11,783 nucleotides of DNA from Porticoccaceae bacterium UBA2002 (GTDB lineage Bacteria; Pseudomonadota; Gammaproteobacteria; Pseudomonadales; Porticoccaceae). Positions 4,545 to 11,743 of this stretch are shown one piece after another. The notes beneath the pieces were generated by a model, which was not told the DNA's origin, did no database searches, and worked only from the letters and a program-made list of their open reading frames with translations. Numbering within the stretch: position 1 is the stretch's first letter; the number at the start of each line of letters is the position of its first letter. Made by a program: the position numbers and the translations under genes. Location: assembly GCA_002334915.1 (NCBI GenBank), contig DDCQ01000111.1, positions 1 through 11,783 on the forward strand, written 5' to 3'.

Positions 4545-4778
4545 CTATTCGCTATAGCTATTATCGCCTTGGTCATAGAGGTCTTTGACGCTCACATTTA
4601 AGGCCTCTGCTAACAGCGCAACTTCCTTGTCATTTACGCGCCTTACCTGAGCTTCAATCTTAGCCAGAGTGCTGCGGCTTATATCCCACTTCTTGATATT
4701 GCAGCGCGCAGCCAACGCTTCCTGGGTCAATCTTTTTGACGATCTTAAGGCTTTGACTTTGGGTCCAATTACATTCAT
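4545..4778 (-). CDS. Small XRE-family helix-turn-helix regulator
   Basis: A 77-residue protein that is essentially one Cro/C1-type DNA-binding domain. The segment from about residue 7 to 68 has the family pattern: KVKALRSSKRLTQEALAA (first helices), then the recognition region around RSTLAKIEAQVR (35-46), and VALLAEALNVSVKDLY (53-68) closing the domain. No enzyme or ligand-binding domain is attached, so it probably acts as a small dimeric repressor. The start is supported by GGAG (minus strand, 4790-4787), 8 bases before the ATG. That Shine-Dalgarno sequence lies in one arm of a palindrome (4786-4801) with a near-identical mirrored copy before the divergent 90-residue gene. By analogy with compact phage or cassette repressors, it likely controls its own expression and its divergent neighbour. 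This is inference, and the palindromes could act in RNA instead. The target genes are not otherwise visible. Confidence 0.85.
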   Translation of the reverse strand: MNVIGPKVKALRSSKRLTQEALAARCNIKKWDISRSTLAKIEAQVRRVNDKEVALLAEALNVSVKDLYDQGDNSYSE

Positions 4779-4785
4779 TTAACAG

Positions 4786-4801
4786 GCTCCGTGCGTGGAG
4801 C
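4786..4801 (-). promoter_or_regulatory. Palindrome overlapping the XRE gene ribosome binding site
   Basis: On the minus strand the sequence reads GCTCCACGCACGGAGC: a 5-bp inverted repeat (GCTCC/GGAGC) around 6 bases. Its 3' arm supplies GGAG, the Shine-Dalgarno sequence of the XRE gene, 8 bases before its ATG. It is 13/16 identical to the plus-strand element at 4832-4847, differing only in the central three bases. It could be a repressor operator, an mRNA hairpin masking the ribosome binding site, or both. Confidence 0.65.
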
Positions 4802-4807
4802 TTGATT

Positions 4808-4827
4808 CTGCCAAAAATTACTGCCAA
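4808..4827. repeat. Direct repeat CTGCCAA x2 in the divergent promoter region
   Basis: CTGCCAA occurs at 4808-4814 and again at 4821-4827, a 13-base period, inside the 28 bases separating the two palindromes. Both divergent promoters must overlap here. On the minus strand each copy reads TTGGCAG, in which TTGGCA resembles a -35 hexamer, but no well-spaced -10 was found in either direction. It may be a second protein-binding site or chance. Confidence 0.35.
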
Positions 4828-4829
4828 GG

Positions 4830-4849
4830 TTGCTCCATAAACGGAGCAA
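4830..4849 (+). promoter_or_regulatory. Palindrome overlapping the ribosome binding site of the 90-residue ORF
   Basis: TTGCTCC-ATAAAC-GGAGCAA is a perfect 7-bp inverted repeat with a 6-base loop. Its 3' arm contains GGAG (4843-4846), the Shine-Dalgarno sequence for the ATG at 4857, with 10 bases between. The core (4832-4847) is the mirrored partner of the element at 4786-4801, with centres 46 bases apart. Each copy is oriented the same way relative to the gene it precedes. Confidence 0.68.
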
Positions 4850-4856
4850 AGAATTT

Positions 4857-5129
4857 ATGGATAAAGTAACTCACCAGAGCATTATTCTTACTAAAAATAT
4901 TCAAGTTTTTAACAACGATTTTGCCAATTTTAGTCGCGACTGTTCTTTCCTATCTGATGCATTTACCGAACTGATTAATACGGAAACCCACAAAGAGGAC
5001 AGCGCCACTGTCGGACTGATCATTTTTTCACAGTGGGTAAAGTCCAGAACCAGCGAGCTCAACAAAAACATGAGCGAGATCAAGGCCAAGTCGAATAATA
5101 TTCTCTGGCAACATACAGATCAAGGCTAA
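4857..5129 (+). CDS. Unrecognised 90-residue hypothetical protein divergent from the XRE gene
   Basis: I do not recognise this protein. It has 90 residues, is polar and probably mostly helical, and has no evident signal peptide, metal-binding cluster or enzymatic motif. VGLIIFSQWV (about 52-61) is its only hydrophobic stretch and is too short for a convincing membrane helix. The ATG at 4857 is chosen because GGAG lies 10 bases upstream. The in-frame TTG at 4830 would start inside the palindrome and lacks a ribosome binding site. By hand count, 4861-4980 has 37 G/C in 120 bases, against 72 in 120 for 9001-9120 in dapE, so composition differs sharply and suggests acquisition. Its divergent pairing with the XRE regulator and the mirrored palindromes suggest coordinated control. 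It could be an effector, an antirepressor or an orphan. The gap to the next gene (5130-5242) shows no convincing terminator or promoter. Confidence 0.65.
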   Translation: MDKVTHQSIILTKNIQVFNNDFANFSRDCSFLSDAFTELINTETHKEDSATVGLIIFSQWVKSRTSELNKNMSEIKAKSNNILWQHTDQG

Positions 5130-7966: not shown

Positions 7967-8626
7967 ATGAGTAAGCGCATAAGTTCATCATTGGCAATTA
8001 TCGCCAGCACAATTCTTACCTGTTTAATCAGTTCGACGGCTGTAGCCGGTACCGTAGAGATTACCTATGAGAATAGCGGAACCTCCAGCAACAACGCCGG
8101 ACTGCATGAACTCAGCATCGATGGTGTCAGTACCTATGCCATGAATGCAAAAGCAAAACCACCCAAAAAAGGCAAAACCTGGACAGCCACTGTCAACTCC
8201 TACGACGATGTGCAGGCGGGCGCTGGCAAGTTTAATAAAAAGCCCGGAGATGCCACCAAATACAACCGTACTGGCTATCTGTTCAGCTACATGGACTTCC
8301 GCGACAACCTGAGTACCAGCAGCACCGCTTGGAATGCGGCCATTAATCAGGCAGTTTGGAAAATTATGGGCAAAAAAGGCAAGCTCAGCTCTCTGGCGAC
8401 CAGCATTTACAACTATGCCACCGCAGGTTACAGCTTTATTGATAACTATAACTGGAGCGATAGCATGTCGGTCTATACATCGACAAACCTGAGATCCGAA
8501 TTCTATGCCCCTATGGCACCCATTCCCAACCCGATTCCCAGCGCAATCTTTCTGTTTGGCTCAATGTTTATTGGCCTGTTCGGTCTTCTCAGACGCAATT
8601 CAAACCAACAGGCAACAGCTGCCTGA
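7967..8626 (+). CDS. Secreted protein with PEP-CTERM-like sorting tail
   Basis: A 219-residue exported protein of unknown function. Residues 1 to about 27 form a Sec signal peptide (basic SKR, hydrophobic core, cleavage near AVA-G). The C-terminus has the three-part exosortase sorting layout: a proline motif PIPNPIPSA (185-193), a hydrophobic helix IFLFGSMFIGLFGLL (194-208) and Arg-Arg (209-210). It resembles the VPLPA-type variant, with Pro-Ile-Pro rather than Pro-Glu-Pro. An exosortase would cut this tail and release or attach the protein at the outer surface. No exosortase gene is in the window. AWNAAINQAVWKIMG (121-135) recalls the QxAIW segment of thioester-like adhesin domains. The mature protein has no cysteine (the only one is in the signal peptide), so a thioester cannot form. 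It has its own strong ribosome binding site and a strong terminator, so it is probably monocistronic. Confidence 0.75.
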   Translation: MSKRISSSLAIIASTILTCLISSTAVAGTVEITYENSGTSSNNAGLHELSIDGVSTYAMNAKAKPPKKGKTWTATVNSYDDVQAGAGKFNKKPGDATKYNRTGYLFSYMDFRDNLSTSSTAWNAAINQAVWKIMGKKGKLSSLATSIYNYATAGYSFIDNYNWSDSMSVYTSTNLRSEFYAPMAPIPNPIPSAIFLFGSMFIGLFGLLRRNSNQQATAA

Positions 8627-10855: not shown

Positions 10856-11695
10856 CTAGCCTGGCAACCTTTGCAGAGCAAAAACATCAAACCTGGTGGA
10901 CTTGCCCTCCAGCGAATAGCTAGGAGCCATACCTGCCAGATAATCTGCACTGACAGAGCGTTTGACCACCACTCGATAGCGGGCGCGCTGCATAGCCAGC
11001 TCCAATAGTTGGCCGGCATCCGGGTCTGAACCCACTATAAGGTGGAACGCCTGCATCTCTTTTTTTACCTTGGCCGATTTCTTGCGCTCGGGAAACATAG
11101 GATCCAAAAACACAATATCCTCCTGCTCCGAGGCGGGTAATCGCCCGAGAAAATCTCTGGACTCGCCTTCAATTAATGACATCCGCGACACAATATCAGC
11201 CAGCTCCGAGTCATCCTCCCCGGCTACGGCCGCCCGATCCAAGCCATCGCGAAGCAGGCTGTGGACTATGGGGTTGCGTTCTAATAACCGCACTCTGCAG
11301 CCCAGACTGGCTAGCACAAACCCATCGCCACCTAGGCCAGCTGTAAGATCAAGTACGCCTGGAACAAACTTGCCGGTCACACCCACAGCTTTGGCTATGG
11401 CTTGACCATTGCCACCACCAAATTTACGCCTGTGGGCCAGTGCTCCGCTATCGAAGTCGCAGCGAATGGGACCATGGTGCTTGCGCCTGACGGGAACCAG
11501 TGAGAGGCCCTGAGAATCGAGCTGCAAATAATAGCCAGCATTAACCCCAGCCGCCTGGTCAACAGACCGGTCAGCAGCCCTGCTTATAGCAGCAACCTCC
11601 TCAGCGTCGACAACAGGCAGACCCAAGCGCTCAGCTATGCTTATCGCTGCAGCCTGAAGGTCCGGTTGAGTAAAAGAGACTTTAATACTGGTCAT
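10856..11695 (-). CDS. rsmJ: 16S rRNA (guanine-1516-N2)-methyltransferase
   Basis: Class I SAM-dependent methyltransferase of the RsmJ (YhiQ) family, which methylates G1516 of 16S rRNA. With the start used here it has 279 residues, against about 250 in E. coli. Numbered from that start, the SAM-binding motif is DLTAGLGGDGF (116-126), followed by LLERNP (137-142), the catalytic-loop motif FLDPMFPERKKSAKVKKEM (196-214) and VVVKR (242-246). The ATG at 11695 is preferred because the family pattern begins soon after it. None of the candidate starts has a clear Shine-Dalgarno sequence: an ATG at 11713 and a GTG at 11740 are in frame, and the GTG would almost abut the divergent gene's start at 11744. 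It ends 15 bases from the convergent EamA gene. No functional link to dapE is implied. Confidence 0.93.
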   Translation of the reverse strand: MTSIKVSFTQPDLQAAAISIAERLGLPVVDAEEVAAISRAADRSVDQAAGVNAGYYLQLDSQGLSLVPVRRKHHGPIRCDFDSGALAHRRKFGGGNGQAIAKAVGVTGKFVPGVLDLTAGLGGDGFVLASLGCRVRLLERNPIVHSLLRDGLDRAAVAGEDDSELADIVSRMSLIEGESRDFLGRLPASEQEDIVFLDPMFPERKKSAKVKKEMQAFHLIVGSDPDAGQLLELAMQRARYRVVVKRSVSADYLAGMAPSYSLEGKSTRFDVFALQRLPG

Positions 11696-11743
11696 GCTGT
11701 TATTTAAACACATATACTTTAAGTTCAGGCTCAGGGGCACATC

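What the first reader, a model, noticed from the sequence alone, without database searches (positions are those of the whole stretch)
4786..4849. Mirrored 16-base palindromes that contain the ribosome binding sites of two divergent genes
GCTCCACGCACGGAGC (minus, 4801-4786) and GCTCCATAAACGGAGC (plus, 4832-4847) are identical at 13 of 16 positions and differ only in the central three. Each precedes one gene of a divergent pair in the same relative orientation, with GGAG of the 3' arm 8 or 10 bases before the ATG. In RNA, each leader could fold GCTCC onto GGAG and hide its own ribosome binding site. In DNA, the pair could be operators for the XRE protein. The outward-directed ACGGAGC arm is kept beyond perfect palindromic symmetry, so it is not just a symmetric DNA site. 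I know of no named element with this design.
Basis: partly seen in the sequence, partly recalled or inferred. Interest (0 to 1): 0.72.

Follow-up and report, generated by a model that had tools for sequence, protein, structure and literature searches.

The report
Paired self-control sites of small repressors
The two mirrored DNA palindromes are most likely the docking sites of the small regulator encoded next to them; the same two-site layout, about 46 bases centre to centre, recurs beside relatives of this regulator in distant bacteria, and its letters change together with the part of the protein that reads DNA.

Summary
The cause is most likely DNA, not RNA. Relatives of the 77-aa XRE protein were collected from Pseudomonadota, Kiritimatiellae and Verrucomicrobia. 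With the XRE-proximal palindrome anchored and the distal one ignored, the one strong second palindrome lies 46 bp upstream (54 loci, z 12.8), whatever the divergent gene is. Letters change in both sites together and track the recognition helix of the adjacent XRE (partial correlation 0.72, 0 of 2000 permutations, 41 loci). The ~30 bp between the sites holds a conserved -10 box of the XRE gene and, overlapping it, TTGA(C/T) facing the divergent gene. If that -10 is used, transcription starts inside the proximal palindrome and the hairpin's left arm is not transcribed. Best reading: a two-operator autoregulatory switch of a local XRE repressor that also controls its neighbour. The distal site sits where activators bind (about -41.5), so self-activation plus self-repression is possible but untested. 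RBS hiding is not supported as the conserved function; GGAG doubles as a Shine-Dalgarno in the window.

The parts
4545..4778 (-). Small XRE/HTH_3 regulator, 77 aa; recognition helix SRSTLAKIEAQ
   Evidence: Pfam HTH_3 3.1e-10; family alignment A1
4786..4801 (-). Proximal operator GCTCC-N6-GGAGC; GGAG also usable as Shine-Dalgarno of the XRE gene
4802..4831 (.). 30-bp spacer with the predicted core promoter(s)
   Evidence: spacer is 30 bp in 44 of 57 loci, 29-32 in all 57
4805..4810 (-). Predicted -10 box of the XRE gene (CAGAAT, 4 of 6 to TATAAT, preceded by TGG = extended -10); inferred transcript start near 4798-4796
   Evidence: logo over 54 loci: T.66 A.96 n n G.79 T.95 then CAA; no mapped start
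4802..4807 (+). Predicted -35 (TTGATT) for the divergent gene; -10 candidate CAAGGT at 4825-4830 is weak
   Evidence: TTGA(C/T) conserved in the logo; -10 match peaks at 17-18 bp spacing over 54 loci
4832..4847 (+). Distal operator GCTCC-N6-GGAGC; centred at about -41.5 of the inferred XRE start; GGAG also usable as Shine-Dalgarno of the divergent gene
4857..5129 (+). Divergent 90-aa gene, no known family; predicted two-helix hairpin; found only in the window's genus (6 of 112 family genomes; otherwise 0 of 339 class genomes)

Best explanation
The two palindromes are DNA operators, each bound by a dimer of the adjacent small XRE protein. They bracket a shared ~30-bp core of two divergent promoters. 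The proximal site covers the inferred start of the XRE transcript, and the distal site covers the inferred start of the divergent transcript. The XRE therefore regulates itself and, in the window, its neighbour. Bound at the proximal site it should block its own promoter; bound at the distal site it should block the divergent promoter. Because the distal site is centred near -41.5 of an XRE promoter with no recognisable -35 box, it may also recruit RNA polymerase to the XRE promoter, giving activation at low and repression at high protein level. SHOWN by sequence: layout, spacing, co-change of both sites, covariation with the recognition helix, -10 motif. INFERRED: binding, transcript starts, repression. 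SPECULATIVE (about 0.4): activation from the distal site.
For: Offset scan with only the proximal site anchored (57 of 131 members anchored, 54 non-redundant): palindromicity peaks at 46 bp, mean 3.56 of 5 pairs against 1.26 background, z 12.8 (next best z 2.7); 48 of 54 loci have at least 4 of 5 pairs at 45-48 bp. Pair scan: score>=18 in 41 of 130 upstream regions against 0 of 1300 shuffles. Pairs follow the subfamily: score>=16 in 24 of 27 loci with HMM score >=110, but 1 of 37 at 60-80 and 3 of 19 below 60. Own distal and proximal arms agree in 8.73 of 10 letters against 6.34 permuted (n=41), and 8.63 against 5.42 outside the GCTC class (n=19). Arms track the recognition helix given the rest of the protein: 0.72, 0 of 2000 permutations, top column K40; the rest of the protein given the helix: 0.20, 7 of 2000. 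Classes: GCTC 19 of 19 with T37 and K40; CTTC 4 of 4 with E35 N36; GTGC 3 of 3 with G34 D36. Pattern-only search of 586 genomes: 19 matches; of the 7 with a 29-31 bp spacer, 5 (the window's among them) sit beside a family XRE, of the 12 others none does. Single target: in the three SAR92 genomes whose own site fits TGCTCYN6GGAGC, the 3 matches elsewhere lie inside long open frames.
Against: No binding or transcript-start data. 73 of 130 relatives (mostly low-scoring) lack a pair at score>=16, including 3 of 27 close ones, L014, L025, L026. The -10 match in the window (CAGAAT) is 4 of 6; the divergent -10 (CAAGGT) is weak. The covariation test controls for protein similarity only by partial correlation, not by a tree. 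The GTTC and mixed classes show no simple residue rule.
Confidence: 0.86

Rival explanations
1. Pure double repression (a narrower form of the best explanation): both operators only block RNA polymerase, giving negative autoregulation plus repression of the neighbour, with no activation.
For: Both sites overlap predicted promoter elements. In Pseudomonadota the XRE promoter looks like an extended -10 (TG.cAaAAT), which can work without a -35 box (recalled).
Against: Matches to a -35 box at 16-18 bp (0.74-1.07 of 6) are lower than at most other offsets, and the distal centre keeps the classical activator distance in the groups sampled.
Confidence: 0.5
2. RNA hairpins in both leaders sequester the Shine-Dalgarno GGAG and control translation.
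For: If fully transcribed, the 26- and 28-nt leaders fold with -8.1 and -9.0 kcal/mol. In the proximal site, mismatches that would be G-U in RNA exceed A-C ones, 12 to 4.
Against: Arms without GGAG (CTTCC, GTGCT, GTGTG) keep the layout. Start codon in or within 3 nt of the palindrome in up to 29 of 54 loci, a Shine-Dalgarno-like motif in only 23 of 54; distal mismatches G-T 10 against A-C 9. Inferred start inside the palindrome. Arms track the DNA-reading helix.
Confidence: 0.05
3. The distal site exists for the divergent partner gene only, so the pair is a two-gene module such as toxin-antitoxin.
For: In 5 SAR92 loci the same partner family sits there; a distant partner homologue in G056 (L008) is divergent from a different XRE-like gene.
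Against: The neighbour differs in most loci. The distal site is kept in the 5 SAR92 loci lacking the partner, L040-L044.
Confidence: 0.04
4. Chance or shared ancestry of an unselected cassette.
For: Some close relatives share the whole region.
Against: The sequence between and inside the arms differs freely while arms co-change across phyla; 0 of 1300 shuffles reach score 18.
Confidence: 0.01

Closest known systems
Controller (C) proteins of type II restriction-modification systems
   Same: [quoted passage not shown] The four PDB matches of our family at E<=0.001 include C.AhdI, 1y7y, E 3.1e-4.
   Different: No restriction endonuclease family among the 10 window proteins scanned. Here the two sites are about 30 bp apart, 46 bp centre to centre; C-protein boxes are closer together (recalled).
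Rco of plasmid pLS20 (B. subtilis)
   Same: [quoted passage not shown]
   Different: Rco acts as a tetramer with DNA looping between two operators with multiple binding sites (abstract and section titles); here there are two single palindromes 46 bp apart, and looping over that length is unlikely (inference).
Lambda CI at PRM / CRP class II promoters (recalled)
   Same: A dimer centred near -41.5/-42 at a promoter with a poor -35 box.
   Different: Activation not tested here; one operator on each side of a divergent core.
LacI-family local autoregulation and recognition code (PMC2978694, abstract and section titles)
   Same: Operators near the regulator gene co-change with two residues of the protein.
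   Different: Different protein family; the abstract describes no fixed two-operator layout.
RptR (PMC12255303, abstract)
   Same: Small regulator with cognate sites conserved across bacterial genomes.
   Different: Three direct repeats and a 6-bp palindrome, associated with type I restriction systems.

Membership tests
XRE/Cro-CI family regulator (HTH_3) | HTH_3 domain above the curated cut-off | tested here: met
   40.4 bits against cut-off 23
Autoregulatory operator of an adjacent XRE | Palindromes linked to the regulator gene and covarying with its recognition helix | tested here: met
Autoregulatory operator of an adjacent XRE | Protein binds the sites and changes transcription | not testable with these tools
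   needs footprint and reporter assays
C protein of a restriction-modification system | Linked restriction endonuclease or modification methylase genes | tested here: not met
   No restriction endonuclease family among the 10 window proteins scanned; the only methyltransferase is SAM_MT PF04445 at 10856-11740, an rRNA-type enzyme by recall. PADLOC Control_protein match is weak, 4.8e-07. The window is a contig of 11.8 kb, so more distant genes are not seen
Toxin-antitoxin pair | Constant partner gene from a toxin family | tested here: not met
   Partner has no Pfam, PHROG or PADLOC match at the limits used and the neighbour differs between most loci
Class II activator promoter | Site centred at about -41.5 and missing -35 | tested here: inconclusive
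   Geometry and missing -35 fit, but the start site is inferred
RNA element hiding the RBS | Whole hairpin within the transcript, covering a Shine-Dalgarno | tested here: inconclusive
   Not conserved as such; transcript start not mapped

The most novel reading that the evidence does not exclude
A portable, two-operator 'self-switch' cassette spread over distant phyla: a solitary ~70-80-aa XRE with two private operators locked about 46 bp apart around overlapping divergent promoters. Its operator specificity has diversified into many distinct classes by matching changes in the protein, so that several paralogues in one genome can each act as activator-repressor of themselves and of whatever gene lies next door.
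Probability: 0.4. Interest if true: 0.7.

Novelty: new variant of a known kind. Interest (0 to 1): 0.52.

Why it matters
It gives a natural set of small regulator-operator pairs with a partly readable protein-DNA code, useful for testing how repressor specificity evolves and for building independent genetic switches. It also predicts the target of solitary XRE proteins that are named only 'helix-turn-helix domain-containing protein' or the like. The searches made showed no description of this layout (listings of open-licence papers, of which seven papers were opened in part).

Tried and rejected
RNA hairpin control: rejected as the conserved function, not excluded for this locus. Wider regulon: TGCTCYN6GGAGC in 8 SAR92 genomes gave 16 matches, 7 of them at the XRE locus of G000, G017 and G044; the 9 others all lie inside open frames of 189-870 codons (one search had printed only 4 of the 9). 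In the other 5 genomes the XRE locus itself does not fit the pattern, so they say little. Phage or plasmid origin: 5 phage and 1 plasmid records at 36-43% identity; 3 of these 6 were looked at by eye and show no GCTCC pair. One viral-contig scan, with the single peptide TLAKIEAQ, confirmed no locus. Partner function: 20 homologues, those named being only 'hypothetical'; the model is a two-helix hairpin (pLDDT 90.7) with no PDB match at E<=0.001. C-protein operator spacing in print: the paper sought is not held.

Choices that affect counts: 131 distinct family members came from 171 hits; 1 was dropped for a short upstream region, leaving 130. The anchored test could anchor 57 of 131, 54 after removing near-duplicates. 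Four loci with pair scores 15-15.5 (L024, L128, L155, L162) were dropped by hand, leaving 61 of 65 and 54 non-redundant. The logo used 54 of 57 loci; 3 were left out because their palindrome ends were called two bases off. In one search the most upstream in-frame ATG from the palindrome on was taken as start, so 29 of 54 is an upper bound. The covariation test used the 41 of 54 loci in which both palindromes have at least 4 of 5 pairs. One search showed hits in 65 of 236 genomes; not every hit was fetched. Of the 5 pattern-only loci beside an XRE, only L080 was new: L078 is the window and L187, L191, L196 repeat places found by protein.

Full report
WHAT IS THERE. The window is contig C108 of a 2.04-Mb, 82.3%-complete assembly. 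The closest named relatives are SAR92-clade/Porticoccaceae records. A 77-aa XRE gene (4778-4545, minus) and a 90-aa gene without known family (4857-5129, plus) diverge from a 78-bp gap. Both 16-base palindromes are as described and are the only two exact matches in the assembly.

RELATIVES. Twenty loci encoding relatives of the XRE were found in genome contigs: Porticoccaceae, Cellvibrio, Thiodiazotropha, Psychromonas, Kiritimatiellae, Verrucomicrobia and others. Fourteen of the 20 have a palindrome pair upstream of the XRE (score >=16; shown). More were collected: 11 of 110 family genomes, 6 of 369 class genomes, 65 of 236 genomes of the class of G482, a Verrucomicrobia record, and 13 of 13 genomes behind earlier loci. 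After removal of duplicates there were 131 family members.

THE LAYOUT. A scan without fixed spacing found a strong pair (score >=20) in 50 of 130 upstream regions against 2 of 650 shuffles; 42 of the 50, and neither shuffle, have centres 45-47 bp apart. With centres fixed to 44-48.5 bp, score >=16 is reached by 57 of 130 against 7 of 1300 shuffles, and >=18 by 41 of 130 against 0 of 1300. The least circular test anchors only the proximal palindrome (preceded by TC[AT]A) and asks where a second one lies: of offsets 20-99, 46 stands out (z 12.8; next best 2.7; 54 non-redundant loci). By similarity to the profile, pairs are present in 24 of 27 members scoring >=110, 9 of 14 at 100-110, 11 of 14 at 90-100, 9 of 19 at 80-90, 1 of 17 at 70-80, 0 of 20 at 60-70 and 3 of 19 below 60. 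So this belongs to one subfamily. A search by DNA pattern alone in 398 Pseudomonadota and 188 genomes of the G482 class gave 19 matches. Seven have a 29-31 bp spacer; five of them lie beside an XRE of the family (L078, which is the window; L080, new; L187, L191, L196, found before by protein) and two do not (L190, L193). None of the 12 with other spacers does; L188 has only a weak XRE-like match about 1 kb away (for L196 the XRE is that of L083 at the same place).

DNA OR RNA. (i) Both sites change together: own distal and proximal arms agree in 8.73 of 10 letters against 6.34 after permutation (n=41). (ii) The letters follow the recognition helix: partial correlation 0.72 given the rest of the protein, 0 of 2000 permutations, top columns K40, T37, A43, L38, S36. 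By recall, K40 and S36 match the base-contacting Gln33 and Gln29 of 434 repressor. Classes (41 loci): GCTC with (S/G/A)36-T37-K40 in 19 of 19; CTTC with E35-N36 in 4 of 4; GTGC with G34-R35-D36 in 3 of 3; I37 with R or A at 40 in three GTGT/GTCT-type loci (L097, L099, L113). The 12 remaining loci (GTTC, mixed or single) show no simple rule. (iii) In the CTTC, GTGC and GTGT classes GGAG is absent, although GGAAG keeps GGA. (iv) The start codon lies within, or at most 3 nt behind, the proximal palindrome in up to 29 of 54 loci; a Shine-Dalgarno-like motif precedes it in 23 of 54. (v) Mismatches that RNA could bridge as G-U are not favoured in the distal site (10 G-T, 9 A-C), though they are in the proximal one (12 against 4). 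A Shine-Dalgarno constraint on the outer arm can explain the latter. In L038 and L039 the outer arms stay GGAGC while both inner arms are of the GTTCC type; in L043 and L044, where the partner gene is gone, the distal site is GTTCT-N6-AGAAC on both arms. As free RNA the palindromes would fold (-8.1 and -9.0 kcal/mol), so only transcript ends can fully exclude a role.

THE PROMOTERS. Anchored on the proximal palindrome, the last nine spacer bases read T.66 A.96 n n G.79 T.95 C.90 A.93 A.91 (54 loci): a -10 box on the XRE strand. Pseudomonadota show TG.cAaAATCAA, an extended -10. With the usual 7 nt from the -10 to the start, transcription begins at about the 4th base of the proximal palindrome, which then spans -3 to +13, and the distal palindrome is centred at -41.5. 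No -35 box is seen: matches to TTGACA at 16-18 bp average 0.74-1.07 of 6, lower than at most other offsets. On the other strand the same bases read TTGAC (TTGATT in the window), and matches to TATAAT peak at 17 and 18 bp (2.72, 2.59; next best 2.09). The ~30-bp spacer is just long enough to hold one promoter core read in both directions, which explains the fixed spacing better than protein-protein contact (inference). The starts themselves are inferred.

THE NEIGHBOUR. The divergent gene differs between most of the 57 loci with a pair: SAR92 orphan, DnaJ-like, predicted secreted proteins, response-regulator-like and others (names by eye). Of the 11 SAR92-type hits, the partner is next to the XRE in 5, absent in 5 (L040-L044, distal site kept), and one hit (L045) is a fragment. 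In G056 a partner homologue lies elsewhere, divergent from another XRE-like gene (by eye) with another palindrome, ATCCCAAAATGGGAT, between them. The XRE seems to act only here: in the three SAR92 genomes whose own site fits TGCTCYN6GGAGC, the 3 other matches lie in long open frames.

VERDICT. A real, conserved feature: paired operators of a local autoregulatory XRE. The kind is known; the fixed two-operator, overlapping-promoter layout with many specificity classes over distant phyla was not seen in the searches made, which cover open-licence papers only and were mostly seen as listings.

Noticed in passing
L008:1483-2089: A distant homologue of the 90-aa partner is divergent from a different XRE-like gene (by eye) with its own palindrome ATCCCAAAATGGGAT between them, so the partner family may pair repeatedly with divergent XRE genes.
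   Followed up: partly
L059/L018 and L066: In one Verrucomicrobia-type genome (G481) two family XRE genes lie tail to tail about 90-130 bp apart at two separate places.
   Followed up: no
L185, about 70 nt upstream of 2501: A phage record from human faeces (MT836832) encodes a 36%-identical relative preceded by GCTAATGTCAAG, the same -10/CAAG motif, suggesting that the promoter layout extends beyond the groups sampled.
   Followed up: no
L080:1501-1561: In a Pseudomonadota genome outside the window's class the two 16-base sites are exact reverse complements of each other, loops included.
   Followed up: no
L022, L027, L021, L084: The most upstream in-frame ATG of the XRE lies inside the proximal palindrome, so the operator may overlap the coding start and the mRNA may be leaderless.
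   Followed up: partly
window 7967-8626: 219-aa predicted secreted protein without Pfam family, with a hydrophobic stretch and basic residues near its C terminus, possibly a PEP-CTERM-like sorting signal (by eye).
   Followed up: no
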